From NCBI RefSeq assembly GCF_029392815.1, contig NZ_CP113942.1:62001-126000 (forward strand): a DNA stretch of 64,000 nt. Reading direction: 5' to 3'. The notes under the pieces were generated by a model, which saw nothing but the letters and a program-made list of their open reading frames with translations, ran no database searches and was not told the origin of the DNA. The DNA comes from Bifidobacterium sp. ESL0682 (lineage in GTDB: Bacteria; Actinomycetota; Actinomycetes; Actinomycetales; Bifidobacteriaceae). This document shows, piece after piece, positions 27,339 to 47,916 of this stretch. The translations under genes were made by a program, and so were the position numbers. Every line of letters begins with the position of its first letter. The stretch's first letter is position 1.

Positions 27339-30285
27339 ATGCTGCAAATCAACATGGCTGATGTCATCAATGTCCTGAAATCGCTGGTGCCCTATCTTGT
27401 GGTCGTCGGCGTGATCTTGGTGTTGGCGATTGTCATCAGCGTCGCAGTCAATAAAAAGTCGGTGCAGAATACGGCGGTGCGCAAACTGGTGCGCAGCGAG
27501 ACCTGGCTGGTGGTCCTGGTGGCCATGGTCGTGGCGGTTTCGATGATGCTGACCGGCCCGGTGCAGACGCTGCTCAACAACGCAACGGCGCAGAAGCACG
27601 AACTGTCGCAAGGCACCGTGGACCATGCCAACAAGTTGGCGGCGAAGGTACAGACTGAAGCGGTCACGATGCTGCAGAACGACAGCGACAATCTGCCGTT
27701 GAAGAGCAAGAAGGTCAACGTGTTCGGCTGGGCTTCGACCAATCCGATTTACGGCGGTTCCGGCTCGGGTTCCATCTCCGCGCAGTATCCGAAGGTTTCG
27801 ATGCTGCAGGGCATGAAGAACGCCGGCATCCAGACCAACACGCAGCTTTCGAAGCTGTATACCAACTATCGCAAGACCCGTCCCGAGTTCAACATCTTCA
27901 AGGCGGATTGGACGCTTCCCGAAGTGCCGGCCAACCAATATTCCAGCGACGTGATTAGCGGTGCCAAGAAGTTCTCCGATCAGGCCGTCGTGGTCATCTC
28001 CCGCATGAGCGGCGAGGGCGTCGACCTGCCGACGGATATGAAGAAGCCCGGCACGATCTACCAGGACAATTCCAAGAGCTATCAGGATTTCCAGAGCGGA
28101 CAGTCCTACCTGCAGCTGAGCAAGACCGAGCAGGACATGCTCGACATGGTGACCAAGAACTTCCAGAATGTCACTTTGGTCTACAACGGCGCGAATACCT
28201 TGCAGTTCGATTTCCTGAGCAAGTACCCGCAGATCAAGTCCGTGCTGTGGTGCCCGCCCGCCGGCCAGACTGGTTTCACGGCCCTCGGCCAGGTGCTGAG
28301 CGGCGAGGTCAACCCCTCCGGCCGCACATCCGACACGTTCCTCAAGGATCTCAAGAAGGCCAATAACTACAACAACTTCGGCGATTTCAAATACAGCAAT
28401 GTTGACGAATTCGCACAAACCGTGCCGAGCCCGATGGGTGGCACCTCGACCGTCAAACCGACGTTCGTGAACTATTCCGAAGGCATCTATCTGGGCTACA
28501 AGTTCTATGAGACCGCCGCCAAAGAAGGTCTCATCAACTACAACGACGTCGTCCAATATCCGTTCGGTTATGGCCTGAGCTACACGAAGTTCAAACAGTC
28601 GATGGGCCCGATTTCCGATTCCGGCGACAAGGTGAGCTTCGATGTCACGGTCAAGAACACCGGCAACAAGGCCGGCAAGGACGTTGTTGAGACCTATTAC
28701 AACCCGCCGTACACCAACGGTGGCATCGAAAAGGCTTCCGCCAACCTCGTGGCGCTCGAGAAGACCAAGCTGATCAAGCCCCACGAGTCGCAGAAGGTGA
28801 GGATTTCCTTCAAGAAGTCCGACATGGCTTCCTACGATTCCAAAGGTGCGAAGGCCTACGTGCTGGAGAAAGGCGATTATGATGTCTCCATCAACGCTGA
28901 CTCTCACACGGTTCTCGACCATGCGCCGGTGAATATCGCCTCGACCGTCGCCTACAACTCCAAGAACAACACGCACAGCGGCGACAAGACCCCGGCCACC
29001 AACCGCTTCGACGACACCGCCGGCGATGTGACCTACCTGTCCCGCGCCAACCACTTTGCGAACTATTCGCAGGCCACCGCAGCCCCGGCAAGCCTGGAGA
29101 TGAGCAACAAGGTGAAGTCCGAGTTCGTCAGGTCAACAACGGCAACTACAAGCCGACTGATCACGACAATGCCAATGACAAGATGCCGACCACGGGTGCG
29201 AAGAACAACGTGCGCTTGGCCGATCTGCGTGGCAAGTCCTATGACGATCCGGAGTGGAACAAGCTGCTCGATGAGATGACCTTCAAGGACATGGATAACC
29301 TGATCGCCAACGGCGGTTACGGCACTCCTGCCGTGAAGTCCATCGGCAAGGTCCAGGTCTCCGACGCCGACGGCCCCGCAGCGCTCAACAACATCTTCAC
29401 CAAGGTCGGTTCCATCGGCTTCCCCTCCACCACGTCGTTCGCGTGCACTTGGAGCAGGGACCTCAACCGCCAGTTCGGCGAGATGATCGGCGACATGGCG
29501 CATGACATGCACGTGGACGGCTGGTACGCCCCGGGCATGGATATGCATCGCAGCGCCTTCTCGGGCCGCAACTTCGAGTACTTCTCGGAGGATGGCGAAC
29601 TCGCCGGAGTCATGGCCGCAAGCCAGATTCAGGGCGCCAAGTCCAAGGGTGTCTACGCGTTCATGAAGCAGTTCGCGCTGAACGATCAGGAAACTAACCG
29701 CACCAGCATGCTCTGCACATGGGTCAACGAGCAGGCGCTGCGCGAGGTCTACCTCAAGCCGTTCGAGATCAGTGTCAAGACTGGCGGCACCACTGCCGCG
29801 ATGAGCGCGCTCAACTATGTCGGCCCGGTGTATTCGGGTGCAAGCTCCGCGTTGCTGAAGAGCGTCCTGCGCGATGAATGGGGCTTCCACGGCTTCGTCA
29901 TCACCGATTACTTCGGCGGTTTCGGCTACCAGAACGCTGACCAGATCATCCGCGCGGGCGGCGATACGATGCTCGCCACCACCAAGGTGACCAACAACGT
30001 CACCGACCATTCGGCCACCTCGGTGATCGCAATGCGTCAGGCTTCGAAGAACATGCTCTACACCGTCGCCAACAGCTGGGTCTACCAGAATGGCGAGCCC
30101 AAGGAGCCTACTCCGATCTGGCGTACGGCCAGTATGTGGTCTGGGTTGTCGCCGCGATTGCGGTCGCCGGACTTGAGGTCATCACCATCATGCGCTACAT
30201 GCGTCGCCGCAAGGAGGCCACGGTCAAGGTCGTGTCGGGAGCGGATGCCGATGCGGGCGATGATACCGATGCCGACCAGCAATGA
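27339..30285 (+). CDS. Membrane-tethered, domain-reversed GH3 glycosidase A, two frameshifts
   Basis: About 982 residues. Two N-terminal helices (about 14-38 and 54-73, separated by a basic loop) and one C-terminal helix with a basic tail (RYMRRRKEATVKV) place the catalytic parts outside by the positive-inside rule. The GH3 domains are in reversed order: the (alpha/beta)6 domain first, with the acid/base candidate E226 in RMSGEGVDLP; then an Fn3-like module (YPFGYGLSYTKF, VKNTGNKAGKDVVE); then the beta/alpha barrel with the nucleophile aspartate in FVITDYF (about 856). Breaks at 29126-29131 and 30123-30129 are each fixed by one added base. GGAGAG precedes the ATG. Probably a beta-glucosidase; the substrate is unknown. 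Confidence 0.85.
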
Positions 30286-30338
30286 CCAGTGATGGGCGAA
30301 TATAACTGAACACCAACACCATATAACTGAATATCAAA

Positions 30339-30490: not shown

Positions 30491-33261
30491 TTACGCCACC
30501 GTGATGGCGAGGCTGGTGCTCAGATTGCCGTCCGTGATGCTTAGGATTACCGGCGATGTTCCGGCGTTAGTTTGTGGAGTGTCCTCGGAGCCGGGCATTT
30601 CGATGATGGCGAGGGCTTCGCCGTAGTAGGTGTCGGTGCGACCGATGACGAAACTGCCCGGATTATATGGTGCTGCGCTGCCGAACGCGACCAGTCGTCC
30701 GGCGCTGACCGTCGCGCGTAAAGTTCCGCGTTCCAATGGTTTGGTAATGCCGTTGGCGTCGGTATAGCGCACGCGCACGTATGCTAAGTGCCCGGAGCGG
30801 CAGGTGTTACGGTTGTGGGCCCTGCGGTCCTCTGTCTCCTGTCGATGTTGCTGCGCAGTAGCATCGGCCGAATCGGATTGCGACTCCTCGAACCCGTCTT
30901 GAGGCTCCAGAGAAGCTGTCAACTGTGTCGGCCCTTGGGCGCTGGTCAATGCGCATCGCCCGATTTCCTTGCCATCTTCATCGAAGCTAATGGCCTCAAG
31001 GATGCCGGGTTCGTAATTGCAGCTGAAACGCGCCAAGCAGTTGCCGTGCAACGGTTTTCGCCCGATTTCCCGGCCGTTCAATAGCAAAGCGGCGCTCACC
31101 GCCCGTGCATAGACCTCCACGTTCGCCTTATGCCCTTCGCAGCTCTCCCAGCTCCAAGAAGGCATGGCGTCGGTCATTTTCCATGCACTAGGGGAGTGTT
31201 TGTCACCCGTATGATTCACTGGACGCACGGCGAGATAAGGGCCTTGGCTCTTTTCGAGCGCGACGCGGGTGTACAAGGCCTCACCAGTCACTCGTCCGGT
31301 CAGGTCGAGACGGCCGGATCCTGCGGTGAGCCAACCAAAACCGTTTTCCTCTGGTGCGTAATCCTCGTATTCCCAGGCTCCAACGCCGGTTTCGCCCATG
31401 TAATCCATGCCGGCCCATACGAAATCTCCGATGAGGCGAGGATTCTGTTTGGCCAGTTCTCGGAACTGGTAGGCGTCGCTGCAGAATGTTTCGGAACCGA
31501 GGATGAGGCGGTGTGGATAACGGCGCAGGTCCTTTTGGTAGCGCTTGATGCCGTAGTTGTAGCCGGCGATATCGAGCTGTGCGAAGGCATCGCGGGTCTT
31601 GACGTCGCAAGCGTGCAATGTGGCACCGGTTTTCATGAAGCCGGAGCCCATGATTCCTGCCAGATTGTTGAAGAATTCGCTGCCCACGGCTCTGTGTTTG
31701 GGCTTTGCCGTTTCGTCTTCAGGGCGGGAAGACATGCACGCTCCCGGTACGATGGCGCTATTGTTCTGGCCCTTTCGCGAACGTTCGAGAGTGCGTTCGC
31801 TGGATGCCAATTTGGCCTCTTTGCGCGCCTTGTCGTCGGAATAAACCCCGAAACCGATAGAACTGAGAAAATTGAAGAAGATGTTGATTCCGCAGGTCAC
31901 CGGTCGGCTCGGGTCGAGCGTGTGCAGCAGTCCGACCATGGAACGGGTCAGCTCAATGCCTTTCTTTTCGGCGGTTTCGCTGACCTCGTTGCCGATCGAA
32001 TACATGACGACACTGGGGTGGTTGCGGTCTTTGAGCACCATGCCCTTCAGATCGTTGCGCCAGTTGGTTGGGAAGTGATCGACATAGTCGTACAGGGTTT
32101 TGTGAATGTACCAATGGTCAATGTATTCGTCCAGAACGAGCATCCCCAGTTCGTCGCACGCCTCGAGCAGTGCCTTGGAGCAGGGGTTATGGGCCGAACG
32201 TATAGCGTTGTAGCCTTGCGCCTTCAGCTCTTGGACTTTCCGCCGTTCGGCGTCGGGGAATGCCGCGGCTCCCAGTATGCCGTTGGTGTGGTGGACGCAC
32301 GCGCCCTGCATAATGGTGCGCTCGCCGTTGATGAGGAACCCGTCATCGCCCCAGACCAGTGTACGCACGCCGAATGTTGTGCTGGCAACGTCAAAGATGG
32401 GGGCCTTTGTAACGTCGGCAGAAGTGTTGTCGCTTGTATCTACGGTAGCGGTATCGTCACCGTCGGCTGTGATATCGATGGCAGGTTCGTGGCTATTGGC
32501 CTGATAACTGACTTGGCAAGTATAAAGATTGGGATGTTCCGGACTCCACAATTGAGCATCGGGGATATTCAACGTGACGGTTGCGTTGCCTTCTTCGTTG
32601 GTTTCGCAGTCTGCAGATACGATTGCTGGAGCTGCCCAGCGACCTTGGATGTAATACGTTTGGATGTCGGTGTTGAAGTGGCCGTATCGGCATTCTGTTG
32701 CTTTTCGAAGATCTCAATATGCGCTTTGCCTGCCCCGGTGGTCTGCAACGAGACCTCGATGCCCGTCGGATCTGTAGATAGTGTGCGCACGCCGATTCCG
32801 TCAACGTCGATATGCTCGCGCGGCCCAGTCCAAAGGGTGACCGGACGATAAATGCCCGCCCCTGAATACCAGCGGGAATTGGGCTGGTCGGCGTTATGCG
32901 CCACCACCCGGATTTCGTTGTCCTCGCCAATGGCGACCAGATCGGTGATGTCGACCGTAAACCCGGTGTACCCGTAGTCGCATGAGCCGGCTTTTTGCCC
33001 GTTGACAAAGACCTCAGCAAGTCGGTAAACGCCTTCGAATTCCAGAATGATGGCTTCTCCGCGCAAGTCTTCGTCGGGCCTGAAGCGTCGGATATATTCG
33101 TAATCGCATCCGTCGAACCACCCTGTGTTACTGCCTCCCGGCGCGTTCTCCAGACGAGGCTCGTAGAGCATGGCATCATGCGGCAAGGTCACCGGTGTGA
33201 ACGCTTCCTCGCTGTTCAGATGCCTGTAGGCCCAAGAATCGTTGAATGGTGTGGCTTGCAT
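30491..33261 (-). CDS. Glycoside hydrolase family 2 protein (beta-galactosidase-like), frameshifted near 32638
   Basis: About 923 residues, cytosolic (no signal). Order: GH2 sugar-binding jelly roll (WYSGAGIYRPVTLWTG), immunoglobulin-like domain, TIM barrel with the acid/base glutamate in YSIGNEVSE and the nucleophile in LILGSETF, then C-terminal beta domains like the DUF4982 type of bacterial GH2 enzymes. A long charged insertion in the barrel (DDKARKEAKLASSERTLERS) is unusual. The frame breaks at 32631-32645; one added base gives AGAAPAIVSADCETNEEGN. Beta-galactosidase is the default guess; beta-glucuronidase or other activity is possible. It lies 67 nt after the symporter gene on the same strand, indicating an uptake-and-cleavage operon. 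Confidence 0.85.
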
Positions 33262-33327: not shown

Positions 33328-34890
33328 TCATTGCTGCGATGTCGTTGGCGCGGCCCATGTGCCACCCTGCTCTTCAACCGACTGTTTCTGATGCTCGACA
33401 ATAGCCGCCTGATCCTCCTCGATGTGCTTCTCCACATTAAGAGGCACCATCAGAACTGCAATCAGCGTATAGCACACCAATTCGGCACCCAGATAGCAAA
33501 CGACCAGAACGGTCTGCACTCCGGTGTTTTGGGCAGTCAGTGCAGGGTTGTAGCCGGCCGAAGTCAGCAGCATATTGATTATGCCGTTGCCGAGTCCGGC
33601 CATGCCGACCATGATCGCCCCGTAAACCGACATGGTGAAGCCGTCGGAGCGGAATCCGTTTTTTGCCTCGAGGTGGTCGAGCACATCGGAAAGCAGGGCG
33701 AGAGTAACATACATTGCTGGTATGGAGCCTATGCCTTTGAGTACGACGCCGATGCATACCACTACAAAACTGTGGATGTTGATGAAGCTTACACATCCGC
33801 CAATCACGGCGATGACCATGCCGATACCGACCGCATTGCGTTTGCCGATTTTATTGGCGATGGGCCAGGCGAGCAGCATGCCGATGGCTGTAGGGATGCC
33901 GCCGATTAGCCCAAGTGCGGACATAGCCGCACCTGCTTTGGCTTCGGTGTTGATACCGGAGAACATCCAGCGGCTGTAATAGCTCATCGAACCGTTTTTG
34001 ATCATGCCAGAGAGCTGGAACAAGAAGAAATAGATGATGATGATCCACCAGTAGCTGTTGGACATGCAGGTCTTTGCTTGGGTGGAGACTGGGAGCTTTT
34101 CCTCCTTGATATTGAGATTCATATTCTCTTCAGTGATGCGCTCGCGGGTGAAATAATACTCGCAGAGAATGCCCAAAGCGGTCAGTACGCACAGGCCGAT
34201 GGCAAAGATGCGCCAGTGAGTGTAGCTTTTGGCCACGTCGATTTTGCCGTTGGTTTGGACGAAAAGGAAGCTTTGCAGCACAATTGGCACCACAATACTT
34301 GCCCCGATTCCGGTGGCGGCGACATTTGATGCATTGGAAAGTGTAGCTAAAAGCCCTCTCTGGCTAGTGTTGCGTGTGGAAAGCCCAACCATGGAGCTAT
34401 GCGAGGTGTAATACAAAGGGTAGGCAATCGCGTAATAAAGGTTATAGGAGATTGCGATCCATGTCATTTGAACCAGAGGTGATGTATTACGTGGGTCAAG
34501 GAATAGTAAAACAATAGCCACTACCAGGAATGGTGTGGACAGGAGCATGAAAGGCCTGGCTTTGCCCTGCCGGGTTCGTGTGTTGTCGATGAAATGGCCG
34601 ATCACAAGATTGCCGATGACAACTGCAATCACTGACACGATCGGCAGCGCTGCTGAAAAACCTCCAAATTTTGCGGTGTTAGTCCAACCCAGAACGTCCG
34701 AATAATATCTATTGAGGTATGAGGCGAAGATTGCGTTGGAGATAATGGCGCAAAATGGCCCGACAAGATAACCCAACAACATTTCCGGGGGCTTTACGGT
34801 GCTGCTGGTGATGCGTGTTCGGATGGATTCGTGTTCGAAGAACCGTTCAAATCGGTTTTGCTCCCGCGGGTTTGCGATATCGTTGATCAT
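33328..34890 (-). CDS. GPH-family sugar:cation symporter (MelB/LacS-like)
   Basis: 520-aa transporter of the MFS_2/GPH group with 12 predicted helices. The cytosolic loop NTRTRQGKARPFML and the early segment LLGYLVGPFCAIISNAIF fit the family; a second basic loop (IGKRNAVGIG) marks the C-terminal half. It has no IIA-like domain. The ATG at 34890 is preferred over the adjacent TTG because AGAAGG is 4 nt upstream. Intact. It precedes the GH2 gene, suggesting import of a beta-galactoside or related glycoside for cleavage inside. It lies 165 nt downstream of the first sensor-kinase gene. Confidence 0.86.
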   Translation of the reverse strand: MINDIANPREQNRFERFFEHESIRTRITSSTVKPPEMLLGYLVGPFCAIISNAIFASYLNRYYSDVLGWTNTAKFGGFSAALPIVSVIAVVIGNLVIGHFIDNTRTRQGKARPFMLLSTPFLVVAIVLLFLDPRNTSPLVQMTWIAISYNLYYAIAYPLYYTSHSSMVGLSTRNTSQRGLLATLSNASNVAATGIGASIVVPIVLQSFLFVQTNGKIDVAKSYTHWRIFAIGLCVLTALGILCEYYFTRERITEENMNLNIKEEKLPVSTQAKTCMSNSYWWIIIIYFFLFQLSGMIKNGSMSYYSRWMFSGINTEAKAGAAMSALGLIGGIPTAIGMLLAWPIANKIGKRNAVGIGMVIAVIGGCVSFINIHSFVVVCIGVVLKGIGSIPAMYVTLALLSDVLDHLEAKNGFRSDGFTMSVYGAIMVGMAGLGNGIINMLLTSAGYNPALTAQNTGVQTVLVVCYLGAELVCYTLIAVLMVPLNVEKHIEEDQAAIVEHQKQSVEEQGGTWAAPTTSQQ

Positions 34891-35055
34891 CAAGCCTTCT
34901 TTTATGTTCTGCAGACGTGTGCGGCATCCATGAACCGAACACGTATGGGTATTGATAATCAGTCTGCTCTAATTTCAGGGTTCTGTACAACGCGAACGTC
35001 GTGAAGCGCGGTTTTGGATTCACGAATTGCAGGTCTGGTATTTGAAACCTAGCGT

Positions 35056-36404
35056 TTATTCTTTCGAGAGAATAATATTGAGAACGAACAGATTATTTTG
35101 TGTCTCGACGCTCAGTGCCCCGTGGTAGTGTTCCGCTACCATTTGCATGGAGCGAAGGCCGAAACCGTGGTAGCGCTGATCGTCTTTTGTAGTCATCGGC
35201 AGGCCGTTGTTGAGGGTTATTTCGCCGTTGTAGGGATTGCTTACGTGAATCACTGCCATCCCTTTTTCGGTCTTTACCTGCATGCGGATGAAACGAGGGG
35301 ACGAGGTGTCGATTTTGTTCAATGCCTCCATGGCATTGTCCATGGCATTGCCGAAAAGGGCGTAGATGTCGCTGGGCTTCATAAAATCGATGGCTTTCCC
35401 GTCAATGAGTCGTTCAAACTGGATGCCGCGTTGCTCACAGATCAGAGATTTTTGTGCCAATAGCACGTCTAACGTCTCGTTGCCAGTGCGTACAGAGGAA
35501 TCGTAGACGTCGGCTAGGTTTTTCAGGTCGTTGATTTCGTCGGCCTCTAGATGGTTGCCGAATGTGGATAACTGTTTTTTTAGATCGTGCGTTTTGATAT
35601 TGATGAGGTCAACGGTTTCCTTGTCCCTTATCATTTGTGATTTTTGCTGGTTCAACAGTTGCTGGAGCACGATGCTGTCATGTTCTGCCTCGTTGCGGTC
35701 TAAGATTTCTCGCAAAAGTACCAGAAGGAAACAGCAGGTCACGAGCCGGGTGAGTACGCACATCATGTAGGCAAGTGGGGGAATGGTACTTTCGCTACGA
35801 AATCGTCGAAGAGACAGGCGAAAACGTTGACGCACAACAGTACTCCGACAAGTAGTAGAAGGATTCGAGCATTGAAGGCAATATCTGGGGCTTTACCTTC
35901 CAACGGTCTGGCAAATACCAGATAAGACAATATGAAACAGGGAATGAGAGTCAACGGGTAGACCAGCGAATTCGATAATGTTCCTATGGTCAAATGTCCC
36001 GGATTGATCAGCAAGGTGACAATGATGCCAGCGCAATAGCAGAGATGTTGTGTAGCAATGCCTGCTACCAGATAAAATAGTGATTGCCGTGTGTTCAGTT
36101 TCAGACAGCAAAACAGGCTCAGATAGCACATCAGATAGAAGACTGTGCATCGAAGGATGAGGGTCCAGGCGTTGGTGGGTACGAAAAGTGACCAGCAGCA
36201 GCCGATAGAGAGCATCAGTAGCAGGCAGAGTATCAGACGTCTGGCAAAGTGCGGCCTCCGCTCGAGTTTCCAAGTGAACATTCCAATGGCGATGCACATT
36301 TCGATGAGGAACCCACAGGCATTGAAAAACCACAGGATGTGTCCGATAATTGGCTGTGGCGGCAGAGCTGCGCCTAAGGTGACGGGATCGGCTTCATAGA
36401 ACAT
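35056..36404 (-). CDS. AgrC/ComD-like GHKL sensor histidine kinase 1, frameshifted near 35790
   Basis: About 449 residues. Six or more N-terminal membrane helices, typical of peptide-sensing AgrC-type kinases, precede a coiled coil and a GHKL catalytic region: a histidine box KTHDLKKQL, N-box FGNAMDNAMEA and G-box YHGFGLRSMQ. The frame breaks at 35786-35795; adding one A (GCGAAAG to GCGAAAAG) gives DDFVAKSTIPPLAYMM. The start is uncertain: ATG 36404 lies inside the 3' end of the regulator gene. It forms an operon with the LytTR regulator upstream. No obvious pheromone gene or AgrB processing enzyme is next to it. Confidence 0.83.
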
Positions 36405-37119
36405 GGTCGTTGCCGAGACTTTGCGCAAGTTGGGTGAGGAATGTCTTATGGTACGAACGCCCTATGGGTAGTTGTGTCCCACCGGTCATAGTGATGGTGG
36501 ATCCGTGCACTTGCTCGATGAAGCGTTGATTGACCAGATAGGATTTGCCGTTGCGCAGGAACCCTTGTCCGTCAAGCTTTTTGGCGATATCCGTAAGGCT
36601 TCCGGTGCCGGTGAGGTCAGCTGATTCGGTATGGAACACCAACGTATGCCCTTTGACCTCGATATACGACAGATCCTGTAGCCGGATGATTCTCGTATCG
36701 CTCCTTTGCGTGATGGCGATGGTTTGGCTGCTTTTGCGGCACAGATTCACGGCTCGTGAAAGTTTATGTTCGAAATCGGTGTAGGAAAAGGGTTTGATGA
36801 TGTAATCCAGAGCGTCGACCTCATAGCCTTTGGCGGCAAATTGCGACATATTGGTTACGAAGATCAGGATGGTGTGTTTATCTATGGTCCGAAGGCGCCG
36901 TGCGGCCTCCATCCCGTCCATATTGGGTAGCTCGATGTCCATGAATACAATGTCATAACAGGCTTTGTAAGGGTCGAGAAAGGCAGTCGGCTCAGTGAAT
37001 TCAGTGACTTTGAATTCGATATCCTCGTTTCCCGGATTTTCGCTGAATTGATTGAGACAATTCTTTAGATGGTTCGCCGCCGAAGGGTCATCTTCGATCA
37101 CTGCGACGGTCACCAACAT
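36394..37119 (-). CDS. LytTR-family response regulator 1 (AgrA/ComE-like)
   Basis: 241-aa regulator. Receiver domain with the acidic pocket (VIEDDPSA), phosphoacceptor aspartate in IVFMDIELPNMDG and lysine in YIIKPFSY; then a LytTR DNA-binding domain (ITQRSDTRIIRLQDLSYIEV, NGKSYLVNQRFIEQVHG). LytTR proteins bind direct repeats about 21 bp apart; such repeats occur upstream in the shared intergenic region with GH3-C. AAAGGAA precedes the ATG by 9 nt. First gene of the regulator-kinase operon and divergent from GH3-C. Confidence 0.9.
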   Translation of the reverse strand: MLVTVAVIEDDPSAANHLKNCLNQFSENPGNEDIEFKVTEFTEPTAFLDPYKACYDIVFMDIELPNMDGMEAARRLRTIDKHTILIFVTNMSQFAAKGYEVDALDYIIKPFSYTDFEHKLSRAVNLCRKSSQTIAITQRSDTRIIRLQDLSYIEVKGHTLVFHTESADLTGTGSLTDIAKKLDGQGFLRNGKSYLVNQRFIEQVHGSTITMTGGTQLPIGRSYHKTFLTQLAQSLGNDHVL

Positions 37120-37246: not shown

Positions 37247-37260
37247 TAGCGCAGAATAAT

Positions 37261-37294
37261 GTCGTTTACGCTTTCAAAAAGTTGTTTTACGCTT
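37261..37294 (+). promoter_or_regulatory. Direct repeats resembling a LytTR binding site
   Basis: TTTACGCTT occurs at 37265-37273 and again at 37286-37294, exactly 21 bp apart (two helical turns), each preceded by GTYG. This spacing is what LytTR regulators (AgrA, ComE) use. The site lies between the divergent LytTR regulator and GH3-C, 90 bp before the GH3-C start and just upstream of the regulator promoter. Confidence 0.6.
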
Positions 37295-37383: not shown

Positions 37384-40300
37384 ATGAACAATAAAACGGG
37401 AGGGGCTCCACAGTCCGGAGCTCCGCAAAATGAGGGCAATAAGGCTCTCGCAGGCTCCGCGGCACCGTTGCGAAAATGGCGTGGTCTTTTTACCGTCGGT
37501 GCGTTCCTGTTATCGGTTGCCATGATTGCCGGAACGGTTCTGGAAACCTACCGTACTTCGGTGGATGCGTTTACTGGCACGAGAAGCGAGGCGCAAATCA
37601 CCGACCATTCCGCAGATAAGGCGGATAGCTGGAACTATAAATCCGAATTCAAGACGGCGAAGAGTGCTTACGAAGGCTTTAAGTCCTTCGCTATCAACGA
37701 ATCTCAGGAGACTATGGCGTTGCTGAAGAATGAGAAGAGTGCATTGCCCATCTCGAAGAACGCCAAAATCACCATGTTCGGGGTGCGCAGCTATGCACCG
37801 GTGTATGGCAGCTCCATGGGCTCGCAGTCCAATGGCGCGTCCGTGGTAAGCATCACTGATGCTTTTAAAGAACGTGGCTTCGATTTGAATCCTTCCATGA
37901 CGAAGGCCTACCAACAGTTCTTCAGTGGCAAGAAGTGGGCCAAGCCCAAATTCGGCGGCGGCGGTCCAAAGCCTGAGTATGAAGAAATCACCAAGTACAA
38001 CGACCCTTCGGAATTGAGTCTTGACCAGTTGGCCAAGCTTAATCCGCAATATGCTTCGCAGTACGACCAGTACAATGACGCCGCAATCGTGGTGGTCGGC
38101 CGTCCTGGTGGAGAAAATGGCAATGGCTATCTTCCGGGCAAGGCTGGTCGCGCTGAGGGCGTGGACACCGTCACGGGCAATATTCTGAGCCTCGATACCA
38201 ATGAAATGGCCATGGTCCATGAGGCCGAGGCTCATTTCAAGAAGGTCATCGTGCTGGTCAATTCCGTGCATCCGATGGAGATCGCGAATCTGAAAAGCGA
38301 CCCCAAGGTCAATGCCATCATGTGGATCGGCTATCCGGGATGCTATGGATTCTACGGTGTCGCTGACGTGCTTAATGGTACTGTCTCTCCTTCGGCCCAT
38401 CTCGGCGACGTGATGGCTGTGAACTCTGCTTTGGCTCCTGCCATGGCCAACTATGGCAATATTCCTTGGAAGAATGCTTCGAAGTTCGCCAAGACGGCCA
38501 ATGTCAACTCCTATCTGATTGAAGCGGAAGGCATTTATACCGGTTATCGCTATTACGAGACTCGTTATGCGGATACCGTAGCTGGCGGAGATGCTGCGCA
38601 GAGCGCCAAGACGGCCAAGGCTGGTACCTACGCCAATGCCGACGGTACTCCTGCCACAGCAGATGGCACTTGGGAATACGGCAATGAGGTCTCCTATCCG
38701 TTCGGTTATGGCCTGAGTTACACCAAGTTCTCTCAGAAGCTCGACGGCGTCAAGATTCGCGGTGACAAGAAAGCCGCCACGGTCTCCGTCACTTCCACCA
38801 ATACAGGTAACGTTCCGGGTAAGGCGGTCGTGCAGCTTTATGCTTCCGTGCCATATACCAAGTATGACAAGCAGTATGGTGTTGAGAAATCCGCGATCCA
38901 GTTGATGGACTTTGAGAAGACCAAGACGTTGAAGCCCGGTGAATCCCAGAGCATCAGCATGAACGTTGATATGGCTAATCTTGCCAGCTACGATTCCCAG
39001 CACGCCAAGACCTACATTGTTGATCCGGGCAGTTATTATTTCGCGATTGGCGATGATGCACATGACGCTCTCAACAACGTGCTTGCAGCCCAGGGCCACA
39101 GCACCTCTGACGGCATGACCGCTGCAGGGGACAAGTCCAAGACCTATACGTGGAAGTGGGACGGTAATGTGGATGCACGTACCTTCTCCACTTCTGACAA
39201 TGGCAAGAAGATCACCAATCAGCTTTCCAAGGGAGATTACGCGACTGATTTCAATGCGTTTGAGCCGGGAACCGTAAAGTATCTGACTCGTTCGGATTGG
39301 AGCGGAACCTTCCCGAAGACCTATTCTGGCCTGTCTGCTGACGCCAAGCTCACCAAGCTTTTGAACAACGACTTCGTTCCGCTTACCAAAGGAGACACTT
39401 CGGCTTACAAGGTGGGTGACAAGTCAAGCCATCTCAAGCTCAGTGACCTCAAAGGCGCTTCGTTCAACGACAAGCGTTGGGGCGCATTGGTCAGTCAGGT
39501 GAGCATACCTGAATTCATGAAGTTTGCCGAGAAGGCATTCCATGCCATTGGTGCTATCCCCTCCGTCGGCCTGCAGAACCAGACCACTGATGACGGCCCC
39601 GGTGGTTCGGATTCCCACACGTTGAGTGAAGGCAAATATCAAGGCAAGGCGTTCCCAGATGCCAAAGACCCCAAGTATGCGAACAAGGGAACTACCGTGG
39701 CTCCTGCCCCCACCAATCTGGCCTATAGCTGGAACAAGGAACTCGGATACCGCAACGGGCAAGTCATCCTGGGCGAGACCGGATTAATTTTCAATCTGCC
39801 TATCGTCATTGGACCGGCTATGAATCTGCATCGTCATGCCTACAATACGCGTGCAGTCGAGTACTATTCCGAAGATCCGATTCTCTCTGGTTTCATGGGA
39901 AGTTCCGTCACTCAAGGCGAGCAGTCCAAGGGCACGATGGCCAATGTAAAGCATTTCGCGTTCAATGATCAGGAAATCAATCGTTCCGGTGTCGCGCCGT
40001 TTATGAGTGAGCAGCGTGCGCGTGAAATGGAACTGCGTAATTTCGAGCAGGCCATTGAAGCTAAAGGTGAGCCTGCCTCATTCAAGGGCAATGAGAAGCA
40101 ACTGAAGCAGGCCGGCGCAAAGACCATCTTGCCGGAAGGTATCGTTGGATCCTCCGTTGCTCCTTACAAGCAAGGCGCATTGGGCATTATGACTTCCTAC
40201 AATCGTGGAGGCGCTGTCCCGGTGAGCGCGAATTATGCGGTCTCCAACAGCATCCTTCGCCAGGAATGGGGCTTCACTGGATATGCCGTCACCGATTTCA

Positions 40301-40671
40301 CGTCGGTTGCGCCTCTGGCCGCGCCTAAGGAATCGATTCTTGCTGGGACGATGGCCTTCTGTGGGTTTGGCAACATGGGTGTGCCTTATTGGAACGCCGA
40401 TACGCTGGGCAGTGATCCGAAGATGGTCAAGGCCATCCAGACTGATTTGCACTATGCCTTGTGGGCGATTGCAAATTCCAACGCCATGAACGGTGTCAAC
40501 TCCACCACCCATACCAAGGAAATCATTACATGGTGGCGTGCGGTGTATATCGCAGCTATCGTCGTGACCGCATTGGTGACCTTGATTGGCATCATCGGCT
40601 ATGTCATGGTTTGTGTACGTAGGAAAAGCTCGTCGGTAGCCGACGCGCAGCCCGCAAAAGGGAAGGAGTAA
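37384..40671 (+). CDS. Membrane-tethered, domain-reversed GH3 glycosidase C
   Basis: 1095 residues and intact, the best copy of its class in the window. One N-terminal helix after a basic stretch (LRKWRGLFTVGAFLLSVAMI) and one C-terminal helix with a basic tail (VMVCVRRKSS) anchor an outward catalytic part. The (alpha/beta)6 domain comes first, with an acid/base candidate in RPGGENGNGYLPG; then Fn3-like (YPFGYGLSYTKF); then the barrel with the nucleophile D971 in YAVTDF. It carries insertions missing in copies A, B and D, including a glycine-rich loop (FGGGGPKPEY) and a long barrel loop around residues 745-780. Four nt separate it from the next gene (operon). Probably controlled by the adjacent LytTR system. 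Confidence 0.86.
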   Translation: MNNKTGGAPQSGAPQNEGNKALAGSAAPLRKWRGLFTVGAFLLSVAMIAGTVLETYRTSVDAFTGTRSEAQITDHSADKADSWNYKSEFKTAKSAYEGFKSFAINESQETMALLKNEKSALPISKNAKITMFGVRSYAPVYGSSMGSQSNGASVVSITDAFKERGFDLNPSMTKAYQQFFSGKKWAKPKFGGGGPKPEYEEITKYNDPSELSLDQLAKLNPQYASQYDQYNDAAIVVVGRPGGENGNGYLPGKAGRAEGVDTVTGNILSLDTNEMAMVHEAEAHFKKVIVLVNSVHPMEIANLKSDPKVNAIMWIGYPGCYGFYGVADVLNGTVSPSAHLGDVMAVNSALAPAMANYGNIPWKNASKFAKTANVNSYLIEAEGIYTGYRYYETRYADTVAGGDAAQSAKTAKAGTYANADGTPATADGTWEYGNEVSYPFGYGLSYTKFSQKLDGVKIRGDKKAATVSVTSTNTGNVPGKAVVQLYASVPYTKYDKQYGVEKSAIQLMDFEKTKTLKPGESQSISMNVDMANLASYDSQHAKTYIVDPGSYYFAIGDDAHDALNNVLAAQGHSTSDGMTAAGDKSKTYTWKWDGNVDARTFSTSDNGKKITNQLSKGDYATDFNAFEPGTVKYLTRSDWSGTFPKTYSGLSADAKLTKLLNNDFVPLTKGDTSAYKVGDKSSHLKLSDLKGASFNDKRWGALVSQVSIPEFMKFAEKAFHAIGAIPSVGLQNQTTDDGPGGSDSHTLSEGKYQGKAFPDAKDPKYANKGTTVAPAPTNLAYSWNKELGYRNGQVILGETGLIFNLPIVIGPAMNLHRHAYNTRAVEYYSEDPILSGFMGSSVTQGEQSKGTMANVKHFAFNDQEINRSGVAPFMSEQRAREMELRNFEQAIEAKGEPASFKGNEKQLKQAGAKTILPEGIVGSSVAPYKQGALGIMTSYNRGGAVPVSANYAVSNSILRQEWGFTGYAVTDFTSVAPLAAPKESILAGTMAFCGFGNMGVPYWNADTLGSDPKMVKAIQTDLHYALWAIANSNAMNGVNSTTHTKEIITWWRAVYIAAIVVTALVTLIGIIGYVMVCVRRKSSSVADAQPAKGKE

Positions 40672-40674
40672 GTC

Positions 40675-41160
40675 ATGACGGAAGCAACGATTGAGACAGG
40701 AAAATCATCCGATTCGACGTTCTCGCTCAAGGGTTCTGTACTTGAATGTATTGCTGTTCTTGCCGCATTGGTGGGTGTGATCGTATATGTTTATACTTCC
40801 ACAACTGGCTATATGTCTGGCAGTGGTATGAGCGTCTGGCCTCTGATTCTAACCATCGTGGCGATGATTGCTGTAGCGTGCAAAGTCATCTTCATGCCTC
40901 GAAGCAGGATGTCAGCTGCCGATTCTAGCCGCGACATTCTGTCCGACGTGTTGGTGATGGGTGGTGAAGTGCTGTTGGTTATTTCGTTCGCGTTGTTCGT
41001 ACTCGCGCGCGTGCGTCTTGCGGCTGACATCTACTTCATTCCTGTTAATTATCCGCACAGCGAGGTGACGGCACTCAACATTTCCGTGGTGGGTGTGCTG
41101 TTCTATCTTGTGGCGATAATCGCTTTGATTATCCGTGTCTGCCGTAGGGGCCGCCGGTGA
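40675..41160 (+). CDS. Small four-helix membrane protein of unknown function
   Basis: 161 residues, four predicted membrane helices (about 22-42, 54-73, 93-113, 133-154), short cytosolic ends with a basic C-terminus (RVCRRGRR). I do not recognise the family. It starts 4 nt after GH3-C with AAGGAG upstream, so it is co-translated. It may be a partner or anchor of GH3-C; none of the other GH3 genes has such a companion. Confidence 0.72.
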   Translation: MTEATIETGKSSDSTFSLKGSVLECIAVLAALVGVIVYVYTSTTGYMSGSGMSVWPLILTIVAMIAVACKVIFMPRSRMSAADSSRDILSDVLVMGGEVLLVISFALFVLARVRLAADIYFIPVNYPHSEVTALNISVVGVLFYLVAIIALIIRVCRRGRR

Positions 41161-41504: not shown

Positions 41505-44390
41505 TTACTCAGCGGAGGTCGTCGTGCCTTCCTTCTTGCGCTTGAGGTAGCGACGCACGATCACCACTTCGAAGCCGATGGCGAGGATGGCGGTGATGAC
41601 ATCGACGATGATCATCGCAGTCTTCCAGGCCGGCGTCTTCTGGGCGTCGCTATTGGCATCGTAGGCACCGCTGTTCACAGTCGTGTACAGGATGTGCTTG
41701 CTCGCGTTGCGCAGCCACTTTACGGAGGTGGCGGAGGACTTGTCCTTCACGACATTGTCGCCGTCGCCGTAGGTGGAGAGCATCGCGTCGACGCCGCCTT
41801 GCAGTGCGTTGTTGGCGTTCATGAAGCCACGTCCGTCAGCGCCGAAGGAGTCGGTGAGGGCCATGCCCTTGAAGCCCCACTCGTCGCGCATGATGGTGTT
41901 GACCCAGCCCTGCTCGCCGCTCCACTTGGTACCGATGTAGTCCCAGCCAACCATGGTGGCGTCGGCCTTGCCCTGCTCAACAGCCATCTCGAACGGGCGC
42001 AGATAGACCTCGCGGGCCGCCTGCTCATTCGACCAGATGCTCACCATCATGGCGTTGGCATCGTAGAGCGCGAAGTGCTTGATGTAGGCGTAGACGCCCT
42101 TCGACTTGGCCCCGGCCACGGCGTTGGCGGCGCGATGGTGCCGGCCAGCTCGCCGTCCTCGGAGTAGTACTCGAAGTTACGTCCGCCGACAGCGGTGCGG
42201 TGCGTATTCATAGCCGGTGCATACCAACCGACGATGCCCATTTCGCGCGCCATCTGGCCCATCATCTCGCCGTACTGGCGGGCGAGCGTCGGGCTCCAGG
42301 TGTTCGCCAGAACCACGGCGATCGGGAAGCCGAGCGAGCCCTGCTTGGTGAAGTTGTTGTTGATGGCTGCGGGGCCGTCGGCGTCGGTGGTGGCCACCTT
42401 GCCGATGGAATCGACCGCAGGAGTCTGGAAGCCGGCCATGGAGCTCAACTTGGACATGTCGTCCACGCTCATCTCGTCAAGCAGCTTGTCCCAGCGTGGG
42501 TCGTTCGGGTCCACGCCGCGCAGATCCTTGAGCTTGATGTTGTTCTTCGCTCCGGTCGTCGGCATCTTGTCGTTCTTGTTGATGTAGGTGTTGCGATCGA
42601 AGTTCTTGTTGACGTGGTACTGGTTCTTGTACTTGTCGGGCATCACGTCGCTTGCCGGAGCGGCGGTGGCCGCAGCGTAGTTCGCGAAGTGGTCCTTGCG
42701 GGACAGATACGTCACGTCGCCGGCGATCTCCGAGATCTTGTTGGTCGCGGCCTGCTTGTCGGTGGAACGCGGGTTGGACTTGTCGAAGGTCACCTTGTTG
42801 GCCACGGTGTAGGTCTGCTTGTCAAGGATGTTGTGGGAATCGGAGTTGACCGAGAGCTGGTAATCACCTTGGTCGAGCACATAACCCTTGGTGTTCAGGT
42901 AATCGTAGGAGGCGAGCTGCTCGAGCGGGAAGGAAATCTTCACGTTCTGCGATTCGCCGGGCTTGAGGAGGTTGGTCTTCTTCATCGTTACGAGGTTGGC
43001 GCTGGCCTTCTCGATGCCTCCGTTGGTGTAAGGCGGGTTGTCGTAGACTTCCACGGCGTCCTTGCCCGCGACGGAACCGGTGTTCTTCACGGTGACGGTG
43101 AACTCGAGGTTCTTGCCGTTCTTGGTGACCGGGCTCATCTTTTGGGTGAAATCGGTGTAGCTCAGGCCATAGCCGAACGGATACTGCACGGTCTTGCCAT
43201 AGTCGATGGTGCCTTCGGCGGCGGCCGTCTCGTAATACTTGTAGCCGACGTAGATGTCCTCGACGTAATTGGTGAACGAAGGAGCGAGGTTGAAGTAGAC
43301 GCCCTTGGCGACCGGCAGCTTCAATGCCATGTCTTGCATGTTCGTGTACTTGGTCGCGCCGGAGTTGTTCCACCATGGGGACTTGGTCAGGTCATAGAGG
43401 AAGGTGTCGGTGGTCTTGCCGGAGGGGTTGATTTCGCCGTTCAGGATCTTGCCGAGCGAATCGAAGCCGACGTTGCCCGGAGCCGGATCCCAGATGGCCG
43501 CCTTGATTTGCGGGTGGTCGTTGAGGAAACCGAGCTGCATCGGGTTCGAGCCGTTGTAAAGGAAAATGACCTTGTTGAAGTTCTTGCAGACCAGGTCGAT
43601 CATGTTGCGCTCGGTCTGGTTGGGCTGCAGGGTGCTCGCCCGGCTTGAAGTCCTTGTATTCCTTGGAGTTGTCCTTGTACTTCACCTTGCTCACGTCGGT
43701 GGGCATGTCATCGTAGCCTTCGCCGCCCACGCGGGCCAGTGAGATGACTGCGGTGTCGGAGAAGTCCTTGGCGTTCTGCATCACGTCGCTGGTGTACTTG
43801 TCGGCGGTGAGTTCAGGCAGCGACCAGCCCGTGCCGAGCGCGCTGTTCTTGCTGTCTCGGGCGCCGAGCTGCTTGTAGAGCTTGCTCAGGGAATCGTTCG
43901 TTTTGAAGCCGGCGTCGTGCAGGCCGTCCTTGAGCGAACGCATCTGATAGTTGGCATTGATGGCGCCGGAGCCGGTGCCGCCGTAGACCGGGTTCTCGGA
44001 GGCCCAGCCGAAGAGGTTGAGCTTCTTGGTGTTCTTCATCGGCAACATGTTGTCGTCGTTCTTGAGCATCACGAAGCCTTCGCCGGCGATGTCCTTCGCC
44101 AGCGTGGTCGCCTTGGCGGTGGTCTCGGCGGAGACCGTCTTGGCCTTGGTGCCAGCCAGGTTCAGCAGTGTCGACATAGGGCCGGCAAGAATCATGCTGA
44201 CCACGGCGACGACCGCGACCAGCGGGATGACGATGGTGTTCGAACGAATCAGCTTGCGTTCGGCTACATTGACTTTCCTTACCGCGATGGCCACGATAAT
44301 GGCCACAACGATAATCGCGAGCAATGCGTAAATATACCATTGAATGGAGTTCCAGACGCCTATGACGTCGGACCATGCAATTCCTAACAT
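41505..44390 (-). CDS. Membrane-tethered, domain-reversed GH3 glycosidase D, two frameshifts
   Basis: About 962 residues with the same plan as copy A: two N-terminal helices (WYIYALLAIIVVAIIVAIAV; IVIPLVAVVAVVSMILAGP) separated by a basic loop, the (alpha/beta)6 domain (acid/base candidate in RVGGEGYDDMP), Fn3-like (YPFGYGLSYTDF), barrel (nucleophile candidate in ALTDSFGADG), and a C-terminal helix with tail RRYLKRKKEG. Breaks at 43633-43640 and 42129-42135 are each fixed by one added base (giving GESTLQPNQTERN-like and TIAANAVAGAKSKG). The ATG at 44390 has GGAGGGG 7 nt upstream. Divergent from GH3-B; shorter loops than A and B suggest a different specificity. Confidence 0.84.
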
Positions 44391-44998
44391 TTCTCTTCCC
44401 CTCCGTGGGAAACGGTGCAGAGCCACGGTGCAGTCCGTTCGGCATTCAACAGCTGTTGTTGTGCTGTCGAACAGGCTGAGACACTCTCTCTTTGAGCATC
44501 TCCTCTGCATTGGTGACTTGATTATACGCGCAGGTCTATGCGGTCATGAACGGTGTCAAGATGGTATGTAGTCTCCGATCCAGGCTCTCTTATGCCTTTT
44601 ATAGTGCGGTTTTGGGGGATGGCGGATGAAAACGGACAGCCATGAGGAATTCATCGTTGACAATAATATGCACCAATTATCTGTATAAATTTAAAGAAAA
44701 TTCGAGTTCTGACGACAAGAACCAGAACAAATTATGCTTGCGTTGTTGCAGTCTAGGGGAATCGCCTTATGTTGTAGCACGATTTTTGATGAAATGAAAT
44801 CCTTGGCATAATGAGGTGTTTGTTAACGCCAACGGACGGGTCAGGGACGATTTGAACGGTCCTGGCGTGCAGTCCATAGGTTTTGCTTCACCCCTGGCGG
44901 GAAGTGTGGCGTATTGTCGCACGGTTTCGCTCGGTTGCCGGTAAGAGTTGCCGGTGCCATGCCGCTGTTTCGAAAAGAAACAAGGAGGAGGACTTCTC
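44391..44998. other. 608-bp divergent intergenic region between GH3-D and GH3-B
   Basis: No gene. It is AT-rich around 44650-44740. A TTGACA box (44657-44662) is followed 21 nt later by TATAAA (44684-44689) facing GH3-B; on the minus strand CTATAAAA near 44600 could serve GH3-D. No 21-bp LytTR-type repeat was seen. Confidence 0.35.
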
Positions 44999-47916
44999 AT
45001 GTTGCAAATCAACATGGCTGATGTCGTCAACGTCATCAAGTCTCTGGTGCCCTATCTTGTGGTCATCGGCGTCTTGCTGGTTCTGGCCATTATCATCAGC
45101 TTTGCCGTCAACAAGAAGACGGTGAAAAACGTAGGAACTCGCAAGCTTGTGCACAGCGAGACATGGCTGGTGGCCTTGGTGGCCATCGTCGCTGCAGTGT
45201 CAATGATGCTCACTGGCCCGATGTCTACGTTGCTCAACAACGCCAGCGCGCAGAAATACGAGCTGTCGCAGAACACGGTGAAGAAGGCAAACCAGCTGGC
45301 AGAGGATGTCGAGAACGAAGCTATCACCCTGCTGAAGAATGACGACAGCACGCTCCCGCTCAAATCCAAGAAGGTCAACGTGTTCGGTTGGGGCTCCACC
45401 AACCCTGTTTACGGTGGTACTGGTTCTGGTTCGATGTCGAAGCAGTATCCCACCGTCTCCATGCTGCAAGGCATGAAGAATGCTGGCCTCCAGCCAAACG
45501 CCAAGCTTTCCAAGCTTTATACCGATTATCGTAAGGAACGTCCGGAAGTGGGTATGTTCGCCCAGGACTGGACCCTGCCTGAGGTGCCTGCGAACCAGTA
45601 TTCTCAGAGCCTCATCAACCAGACAAAGTCCTATTCCGATCAGGCCGTCGTGGTCATTAGCCGCGTGGGCGGCGAAGGTGCGGATCTGCCGACCAACATG
45701 AAGTCCAAGGACATCAAGTACACCAATAATTCCAAGGATTATGAAGATTTCCAGGATGGTCAGTCCATCTTGCAGCTTGACCAGACCGAGAAGAACATGC
45801 TTGATCTCGTCACCAAGAACTTCAAGAACGTGACCGTGGTTTACAACGGGGCGAATACCTTCCAGTTCGATTTCCTCGACCAGTATCCTCAGATTAAGTC
45901 TCTGGTGTGGTGCCCGCCCGCTGGCCAGACCGGCTTCACCTCGTTGGGCCGTGTGCTCGCAGGCGATGTCAATCCTTCCGGCCGCACCTCCGACACCTTC
46001 CTCAAGAACCTGAAGCAGTCGGTCAATTACAACAACTTCGGCGATTTCAAGTACAACAACGTCGACGAATTTGCGCAGACCTTTGCTGGCTTCACCGGCA
46101 AGAATGAGACCGTCAAGCCGCGTTCGTCGACTACACCGAGGGTATCTACGTCGGTTACCGTTTCTATGAGACCGCCGCCAAGGAAGGCCTCATCAACTAC
46201 AACGATATGGTGCGTTATCCGTTCGGTTACGGCTTGAGCTACACCAAGTTCAGCGAGAAGATGGGCGCGATCAGCCACGAGAACGGCAAGATCAGCTTCG
46301 ATGTGACCGTGAAGAACACCGGCGATAAGGCCGGCAAGGACGTTGTGGAAACATACTACAATCCTCCTTACACCGACGGCGGCATCGAAAAGGCGAGCAC
46401 CAATCTGGTAGCCTTTGCCAAGACTGACAAGCTCGAGCCAGGCGCTTCGCAGACTGTTAAGATTTCCTTCAAGGACTCCGACATGGCTTCCTACGATCAG
46501 AAGAAGGCCAAGTCTTACGTGCTCGAAAAGGGCCAGTACGATATCTCCGTGCAGTCCGATTCGCACACGGTCATCGACACCAAGCCGGTCACCATTGACT
46601 CCACCGTGACTTACAACACCAAGGGTCAGACGCATAACGGCGACAAGATCCCGGCGACTAACCAGTTCGATAACGCAGAGGGCGACAACGTCACTTATCT
46701 GTCTCGTGCAGGCCATTTCGCCAACTTTGCCAAGGCCACCGCAGCCCCGACGAACTTCGCGATGAGCGACAAGATTAAGTCCGAGTTCACCAATAATGGC
46801 AACTACAAGCCGACTGATCATGACAAGGCCAGCGACAAGATGCCGACCACCGGTGCGAAGAATAACCTGCGTCTGGCGGCTCTGCGCGGAAAGTCCTATG
46901 ACGATCCGACGTGGAACAAGCTGCTTGACGAGTTGACGTTCAAGGACATGGACAACCTGATCGCCAATGGCGGTTATGGCACGGCCGCAATTGCTTCCAT
47001 CGGCAAGGCTCAGGTCACTGACGCTGACGGCCCGGCCTCTCTGAACAACAACTTCACCAAGGTCGGTTCTATCGGCTTCCCCGCTTCCATGGCGTTCGCT
47101 TGCACCTTCAACAAGGATCTGCCAAGCGTTTCGGCGAGATGATCGGCGAAATGGGTCATGACATGCATGTCGCCGGTTGGTATGCACCGGCTATGAACGT
47201 TCACCGCAATGTCTTCGGCGGCCGTAACTTCGAGTACTTCTCGGAGGACCCGCTGGTGGCAGGCACGATGGCTTCCAACCAGATTGCTGGCGCACGTTCG
47301 CAGGGCGTTTATGCGTTCATCAAGCACTTCGCAATGAACGAGCAGGAAACCAACCGCACCAATATGCTCTGCACCTGGGCCAACGAACAGTCGATTCGTG
47401 AGGTATTCCTCAAGCCCTTCGAGATGAGCGTGAAGACCGGCGGCGCACAGGCCGCGATGAGCTCCTTCAACTACATCGGACCCACCTATGCGGGCGCGAA
47501 CCCGGCACTGCTCAATGGAATGCTGCGTAACGAGTGGGGCTTCAAGGGCTTCGTCGTTACCGATTACTTCTCCGGTTATGGCTTCCAGAACGCTGACCAG
47601 ATCATCCGTAATGGCGGGACACGACACGATGCTCGCTACCACCAAGGTGACCAACCACATCACTGACAAGTCCGCTACTTCCGTCATCGCAATGCGTCAG
47701 GCTTCCAAGAACATCCTCTATTCCGTGGTTAACGGCTGGGAATATGAGCATGGTGAGCCTAAGGCTGCCACCCCGATCTGGAAGACGGCTATGTACGTCG
47801 TCTGGGTTGTCGCCGCAGTGCTCTTCGTCGGCCTTGAGGTCGTAGCGGTTCGCCGTTACCTCCGCCGCCGCAACGAAGCCAAGATCACGGTGACCGACGA
47901 TTCGGCCGAAGAGTGA
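44999..47916 (+). CDS. Membrane-tethered, domain-reversed GH3 glycosidase B, three frameshifts
   Basis: About 972 residues and a close paralogue of copy A throughout (both start MLQINMADV and share most motifs). Two N-terminal helices, (alpha/beta)6 domain with RVGGEGADLP, Fn3-like module, barrel with FVVTDYFSGYG, C-terminal helix and tail (RRYLRRRNEAK). Breaks at 46118-46123 and 47118-47123 each lack one base (DLAKRFGEMIGEM after repair). The one at 47614-47618 has one G too many (GGGG-type run) and reads NGGHDTMLATT after repair. AAGGAGGAGG lies about 8 nt before the ATG at 44999, preferred over an earlier in-frame ATG at 44948. Terminated by the hairpin at 47955. Confidence 0.85.

What the first reader, a model, noticed from the sequence alone, without database searches (positions are those of the whole stretch)
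27339..47916. Four domain-reversed GH3 glycosidases tethered to the membrane at both ends
GH3-A, B, C and D each have one or two N-terminal helices, then the (alpha/beta)6 domain, an Fn3-like module and the catalytic barrel, and finish with a helix and basic tail. The reversed GH3 order is known from a few enzymes (Butyrivibrio fibrisolvens, Ruminococcus albus), but those are not held by both ends to my knowledge. Positive-inside charges put all catalytic parts outside. Both ends in the membrane would fix the barrel close to the bilayer. A, B and D appear to be paralogues; C is a longer outlier with insertions.
Basis: partly seen in the sequence, partly recalled or inferred. Interest (0 to 1): 0.78.

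Follow-up and report, generated by a model that had tools for sequence, protein, structure and literature searches.

The report
Sugar-cutting enzymes pinned at both ends
A Bifidobacterium chromosome encodes four family-3 sugar-splitting enzymes with rearranged domains (three of the genes are interrupted in this assembly) whose two ends are both predicted to sit in the cell membrane; relatives in many gut bacteria share this build and often lie beside a sensor gene pair, so the enzymes likely work on the outer cell surface, probably under that sensor's control.

Summary
The four GH3 genes have the permuted order (alpha/beta)6 sandwich - Fn3 - barrel, with predicted membrane helices at both ends: two N-terminal plus one C-terminal in A, B and D, one plus one in C. 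Only C is a single open frame; A, B and D carry 2, 2 and 3 frame breaks. Unrelated neighbours are broken too and related genomes have intact copies, so assembly error is likely. The build is not peculiar to this genome: 120 of 120 listed A-type and 115 of 120 listed C-type proteins have helices at both ends, and it recurs in Clostridia, Streptococcus and other Actinomycetota. In a six-genome census 13 of 27 permuted but 0 of 31 classical-order GH3 have it. Two further results: anchored permuted GH3 are linked to an AgrC-like kinase / LytTR regulator pair (8 of 12, against 0 of 10 soluble permuted and 1 of 25 classical; 17 of 44 in a set chosen by similarity), and the GH3-C promoter has a LytTR-type repeat with a 21 bp period, imperfectly kept in relatives. 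I read them as surface exo-beta-glycosidases in a membrane-anchored branch of the GlyA1 subfamily that the papers found do not describe. Substrate, topology and cleavage are untested.

The parts
27339..30285 (+). GH3-A, permuted GH3; frame breaks near 29.2 kb and 30.1 kb; two N-terminal helices, one C-terminal helix in a third frame (30133 on), stop at 30285
37384..40671 (+). GH3-C, permuted GH3, intact 1095 aa, one N-terminal (35-53) and one C-terminal (1053-1071) predicted helix
41505..44390 (-). GH3-B, permuted GH3, two frame breaks (near 43.63 and 42.12 kb)
44999..47916 (+). GH3-D, permuted GH3, three frame breaks (near 46.12, 47.12, 47.62 kb)
37260..37291 (+). LytTR-type direct repeat upstream of GH3-C; a 9-base word recurs exactly after 21 bp
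36394..37119 (-). LytTR response regulator, divergent from GH3-C
35056..36428 (-). AgrC-like GHKL histidine kinase, one frame break near 35.78 kb
40675..41160 (+). 161-aa protein with four predicted helices, no Pfam match, 4 bp after GH3-C; present beside the C-type GH3 in 10 of 10 genus loci, this one included
48098..50684 (+). GH3-E, classical-order GH3 without terminal helices, one frame break near 49.6 kb; frequent partner of the anchored GH3
50681..51254 (+). GtrA-like membrane protein, one frame break near 51.11 kb
51375..53619 (-). second GHKL histidine kinase (51375-52712) and LytTR regulator (52897-53619)
30491..33261 (-). GH2 glycosidase (beta-galactosidase type), one frame break near 32.64 kb
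33328..34893 (-). GPH-family sugar:cation symporter

Best explanation
GH3-A, B, C and D belong to the permuted-domain (GlyA1-type) branch of GH3 and are predicted to be exo-beta-glycosidases held on the outer face of the membrane by helices at both chain ends, likely trimming short beta-linked sugars at the cell surface. SHOWN from sequence: domain order, recurrent helices at both ends, conserved catalytic Asp and Glu, and linkage to AgrC-like kinase / LytTR regulator genes and to a classical-order GH3 without helices. TAKEN FROM PRINT: in GlyA1 the first and last parts of the chain pair as a two-stranded sheet (PMC5104943). INFERRED: because that order brings both chain ends together, a helix can be added at each end without disturbing the fold, giving two anchors at one spot; products enter through transporters such as the neighbouring GPH symporter and are finished by cytosolic GH3-E and GH2; the divergent LytTR regulator controls GH3-C through the repeat at 37260-37291. 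Substrate, membrane topology and retention of the N-terminal helices are untested.
Against: No topology program or experiment; helix calls rest on hydropathy and charge. The C-type N-terminal helix could be cut by a signal peptidase (105 of 118 meet a loose motif). Three of the four genes are broken in this assembly. 14 of 27 permuted genes of the census lack one or both helices. At the named loci only 17 of 44 anchored genes have kinase and regulator within 4 kb, and in the genus 54 of 101 A/B/D-type genes have no listed LytTR within 10 kb. In the ten aligned upstream regions the first GTT core is present in 10 but the second at the exact 21 bp offset only in 4, one base off in 6. GH3-A, B and D of the window have no repeat near the level of C: 91, 4 and 6 of 100 shuffles do as well. 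No substrate evidence.
Confidence: 0.66

Rival explanations
1. One-end anchoring: the N-terminal helix is a cleaved signal peptide and the mature enzyme is held only by its C-terminal helix.
For: A loose small-x-small motif follows the N-terminal helix in 105 of 118 C-type proteins. B. proteoclasticus Bgl3A was predicted with a signal peptide and a C-terminal helix (PMC5217386).
Against: A, B and D have two N-terminal helices with a basic loop between them, which is not a signal-peptide layout; strict A-x-A is rare (3 and 4 of 120; 6 of 118); the N-terminal stretch is strongly conserved (for example M1, L2, I4, N5, D8 invariant in 14 A-type proteins).
Confidence: 0.2
2. GH3-A, B and D are decaying pseudogenes, so only GH3-C is functional here.
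For: 2, 2 and 3 frame breaks.
Against: Four other neighbours are broken as well (E, GtrA, histidine kinase, GH2; 7 of 11 genes compared); apart from the divergent B, the pieces keep 69-96% identity to intact relatives; relatives in the genus are intact.
Confidence: 0.1
3. The anchored GH3 is a co-sensor: through its membrane helices it informs the neighbouring AgrC-like kinase whether substrate is present, besides or instead of feeding the cell.
For: Linkage of anchored, but hardly of soluble, permuted GH3 to GHKL kinase / LytTR pairs; a conserved four-helix protein after GH3-C; LytTR-type repeat at the GH3-C promoter.
Against: Linkage is also what plain regulation of the enzyme by the pair would give; no physical interaction shown; the window's GH3-A, B and D lack a clear repeat.
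Confidence: 0.15
4. The enzyme trims the cell's own envelope glycans or glycolipids next to the bilayer rather than dietary sugars.
For: Anchoring at the membrane; a GtrA-like membrane protein lies beside GH3-E in 8 of 12 genus regions.
Against: GH2, GPH symporter and helix-free GH3 neighbours fit catabolism; GlyA1 acts on free oligosaccharides and lichenan (PMC5104943 abstract).
Confidence: 0.08

Closest known systems
GlyA1 (PDB 5K6L-5K6O), rumen GH3 with permuted topology (PMC5104943)
   Different: The main text does not use the word 'transmembrane'; GlyA1 has an extra C-terminal domain instead. A-type proteins have Tyr where GlyA1 has the stacking Trp-710, and GH3-A has Gln for His-631.
Paenibacillus barengoltzii beta-glucosidase (PDB 5WUG, 5WVP) and BrGH3A (PMC11233000)
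   Same: Permuted order; 5WVP is the best structural match.
   Different: BrGH3A has no signal peptide and is proposed to be intracellular (passages seen). No paper on 5WVP was read.
Butyrivibrio proteoclasticus Bgl3A (PMC5217386)
   Same: GH3 with a predicted N-terminal signal and a C-terminal membrane helix; the authors call it possibly membrane-anchored (passages seen).
   Different: Function untested there; its domain order and sequence were not examined here.
Classical-order GH3 (for example PDB 5WAB of B. adolescentis)
   Same: Same catalytic family; GH3-E is of this order.
   Different: Barrel first; 0 of 31 and 0 of 18 classical genes examined have helices at both ends.
LytTR regulatory systems and AgrA-type regulation (PMC6193735, PMC4227749)
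   Same: LytTR regulators bind direct repeats, mostly separated by 12 bp (passages seen); the GH3-C repeat has the same period.
   Different: Here the regulator sits beside a glycosidase gene; binding not tested.

Membership tests
GH3 subfamily with permuted topology (GlyA1 type) | Sandwich - FnIII - barrel order | tested here: met
   Pfam hits in this order for A and C, piecewise for B and D
GH3 subfamily with permuted topology (GlyA1 type) | Fold of the three-domain core | tested here: met
GH3 subfamily with permuted topology (GlyA1 type) | Catalytic Asp (barrel) and Glu (sandwich) | tested here: met
   50 of 50 each in alignment A2; in the window read by eye from the ORFs (TD and GE motifs in A, B, C, D)
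GH3 subfamily with permuted topology (GlyA1 type) | Exo-beta-glycosidase activity | not testable with these tools
   needs enzyme assay
Two-end membrane-anchored branch (proposed here) | Predicted membrane helix at both chain ends | tested here: met
Two-end membrane-anchored branch (proposed here) | N-terminal helix retained in the mature protein | tested here: inconclusive
   motif counts only
Two-end membrane-anchored branch (proposed here) | Separate from soluble permuted GH3 in a tree | tested here: met
   4 soluble rows against 45 anchored rows, 100/98 support, midpoint root, 225 columns; long branches on the soluble side make their place unsure
LytTR-regulated gene | Direct repeat with about 12 bp between the copies, upstream | tested here: met
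   GH3-C: 9 of 9 bases at 21 bp, imperfect in relatives; not seen for the window's A, B and D
LytTR-regulated gene | Regulator binds and activates the promoter | not testable with these tools
   needs binding and expression assays

The most novel reading that the evidence does not exclude
Permutation of GH3 domains was kept because it brings both chain ends to one spot, making an enzyme that can be stitched into the membrane at both ends and coupled to an AgrC-like kinase / LytTR regulator: a widespread class of membrane glycosidase-sensor modules in gut Gram-positives, in which the tethered enzyme helps report its own substrate.
Probability: 0.15. Interest if true: 0.8.

Novelty: new variant of a known kind. 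Interest (0 to 1): 0.52.

Why it matters
The authors who described the permuted GH3 order in 2016 suggested that it widens the substrate range, and that an extra C-terminal domain might hold the enzyme at the cell surface (PMC5104943 discussion). In the genes examined here two-end anchoring occurs only with that order, in a branch that is abundant in sequence collections (one unnamed A-type cluster, P0186, holds 5455 member sequences). That gives a structural reason for the permutation that can be tested, and the link to LytTR pairs gives a handle on how these genes are switched on.

Tried and rejected
Topology inside: rejected on charge. Decay of A, B, D: disfavoured because neighbours are broken as well; only 2 of the 11 break regions contain a run of four or more equal bases, so simple homopolymer error is not the whole story. 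The bee-gut amygdalin GH3 (PMC9897726, passages seen) as a member: by my own reading of its cloning primer the protein starts unlike ours, and the text does not use the words membrane or transmembrane; not pursued. PHROGs and Pfam for the four-helix protein: no hit. A LytTR repeat before A-type genes: 2 of 14 genus genes (both in L079, beside the kinase pair) reach a score met by 0 and 1 of 100 shuffles; the window's A, B, D and E are met by 91, 4, 6 and 20 of 100. Papers: in the titles and abstract starts of the ten searches I saw none on a GH3 anchored at both ends or on LytTR control of a GH3; most subscription papers are not held. PMC8106489, PMC8406136 and PMC5716241 were searched for passages and gave nothing on this.

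Full report
WHAT IS THERE. The window lies in a 2,093,512-base single contig in the genus Bifidobacterium: same-genus relatives G088 and G013 have contigs of the same length as those holding proteins named from Bifidobacterium sp. ESL0775 and B. bombi. Pfam finds Glyco_hydro_3_C, Fn3-like and Glyco_hydro_3 in that order in A and C, and piece by piece along B and D, the reverse of the usual order.

FRAMES. Only GH3-C (37384-40671, 1095 aa) is one open frame. tblastn with intact relatives shows GH3-A in two blocks plus a third frame for its C-terminal helix, GH3-B in three blocks and GH3-D in four. GH3-E, the GtrA-like gene, one histidine kinase and GH2 are also broken; GH3-C, the response regulator, the GPH symporter and the four-helix protein are not. 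That is 7 of 11 genes compared, with 11 breaks in about 24 kb, which speaks for errors in the assembly rather than loss of one gene family; reads were not available.

HELICES. A hydropathy scan puts two helices at the N terminus and one at the C terminus of A, B and D, and one at each end of C. In 12 regions fetched from relatives, 14 of 14 intact A-type genes have two N-terminal and one C-terminal helix. Of the 120 listed nearest proteins of an A-type relative, 120 have two plus one. Of the 120 listed for GH3-C (itself included), 113 have one plus one, 2 have these and a weak internal stretch, and 5 lack one end. These lists hold close relatives and are not independent. Charges are positive-inside: A-type K+R means 0.07 / 5.0 / 1.0 / 1.9 / 5.2 in N tail, loop, after helix 2, before and after helix 3; C-type 3.0 / 2.0 around the N-terminal and 1.2 / 4.9 around the C-terminal helix; by net charge 108 of 115 C-type proteins agree at both ends. 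Cleavage motifs leave the C type open.

STRUCTURE. AlphaFold2 models of an intact A-type relative (P0121, pLDDT 91.2, pTM 0.89) and of GH3-C (pLDDT 80.0, pTM 0.85) match the two solved permuted GH3 best. The part matching GlyA1 spans residues 90-921 and about 82-1039, with the helices outside. In GlyA1 the beginning and end of the chain form a two-stranded sheet (PMC5104943, section read). The GH3-C model has strands 69-73 and 1042-1046 just inside its two helices; which strand pairs with which was not visible to me. From this I infer that both anchors leave the enzyme at one place. In that paper's SAXS models the C-terminal region lies relatively far from the catalytic pocket but near a mobile loop that lines it (section read), so closeness of the active site to the bilayer is not established.

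CATALYSIS. Mapping to GlyA1 by the alignment and the residues named in PMC5104943 (part 1 of the section): nucleophile Asp and acid/base Glu are present in 50 of 50 sequences, Arg-597 and Lys-630 equivalents in 50, His-631 in 48 (Gln in 2), Asp-532 in 48 (Asn in 2), Arg-641 in 43. GH3-A shares Gln at the His-631 position with five relatives. The enzymes therefore look active; the substrate cannot be named.

HOW WIDE. The genus search with the N-terminal part of GH3-A found a match in 90 of 112 genomes at E <= 0.001, weak ones among them, and often many copies. Named genomes with the anchored build include Anaerobium, Butyrivibrio, Pseudobutyrivibrio, Pauljensenia, Cellulomonas and Streptococcus. 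Among full-length genes at the 80 loci kept, 57 of 84 permuted and 0 of 18 classical have helices at both ends. Those loci were chosen by similarity to A, so I made a census of six genomes: of 65 PF01915 hits 57 stretches were fetched and 58 genes classified; 13 of 27 permuted and 0 of 31 classical have both, while 6 classical and 3 permuted have one and 11 permuted none (Fisher 6e-6, genes treated as independent). In a tree of a 225-column segment, 4 soluble permuted rows split from 45 anchored rows with 100/98 support; C sits with Clostridia, A, B and D within a Bifidobacterium group. The soluble rows have long branches, so their exact place is unsure.

NEIGHBOURS. A classical-order GH3 follows within 1.5 kb in 10 of 46 anchored loci with enough sequence and lies beside the A-type gene in 9 of 12 genus regions, with a GtrA-like gene in 8 of 12. 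Next to many anchored genes lies a GHKL kinase with a LytTR regulator. In the census (49 of 58 genes with enough flank): anchored 8 of 12, one-helix 1 of 2, soluble permuted 0 of 10, classical 1 of 25. In the named loci (79 genes): anchored 17 of 44, one-helix 1 of 8, soluble 1 of 10, classical 1 of 17 (Fisher 4e-5 for anchored against all others of the census). In the genus, from typed rows of cut lists, LytTR lies within 3 kb of 9 of 9 C-type genes; of 101 A/B/D-type genes 18 have one within 5 kb and 47 within 10 kb, 54 none; in single-contig genomes 12 of 33 within 5 kb against at most 0.9 expected.

OPERATOR. Between the regulator (36394-37119, minus) and GH3-C lies a repeat at 37260-37291: a 9-base word recurs exactly after 21 bp. 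The upstream regions of ten C-type genes of the genus, this one included, align there without gaps. The first half-site has its GTT core in 10 of 10; the second has it at the exact 21 bp offset in 4 and is one base off in 6 (blocks printed). Among spacings 15-30 only 21 gave a match of 8 or more of 9 in as many as three of ten sequences; four other spacings gave one each. A fixed pattern taken from two of the ten hit 4 of 10 against 0.14 expected from simple shuffles. A matrix built from the ten, so circular for C itself, hit two A-type genes outside the set (L079, 0 and 1 of 100 shuffles) and not the window's A, B or D. LytTR repeats mostly 12 bp apart are in print (PMC6193735, passages seen).

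READING. The best account is a surface-held exo-beta-glycosidase with two anchors, in a broad branch of the permuted GH3 subfamily for which I found no characterisation, at least for GH3-C probably under a LytTR two-component pair. Shown: order, helices by hydropathy, residues, gene linkage, repeat. Inferred: orientation, retention of the N-terminal helices, one-spot anchoring, substrate class, regulation. Prior notice: Bgl3A of B. proteoclasticus (PMC5217386).

Noticed in passing
window 40675-41160: A 161-aa four-helix protein without Pfam match directly follows GH3-C; a relative (42-80% identity) lies beside the C-type gene in the other 9 of 9 genus loci.
   Followed up: partly
window 27339-51254: Eleven frame breaks in 7 of 11 genes compared with relatives; only two break regions hold a run of four or more equal bases.
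   Followed up: partly
window 41505-42119: GH3-B reads KHFALYDANAMMV where the others have KHFALNDQETNR-like text, so it seems to lack the Arg-641 equivalent, and has TDS instead of TDY (by eye); its specificity may differ.
   Followed up: no
window 27339-30285 and loci L069, L072, L074, L075, L076: GH3-A and five relatives have Gln instead of the subsite -1 His.
   Followed up: partly
genus genomes such as G042, G031, G057: Large expansions: up to 19 LytTR genes in a genome alongside many permuted GH3 copies; compared by eye, each of the 56 other genomes with a strong A-type hit (about E < 1e-90) also has a LytTR hit.
   Followed up: partly
window 25853-27147: A protein kinase-like gene (by eye, from an HRDIKPTN-like motif) appears split into two frames just upstream of GH3-A.
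   Followed up: no
L125, L145: Two anchored permuted GH3 carry extra sequence after a pair of C-terminal helices (1258 and 1180 aa).
   Followed up: no
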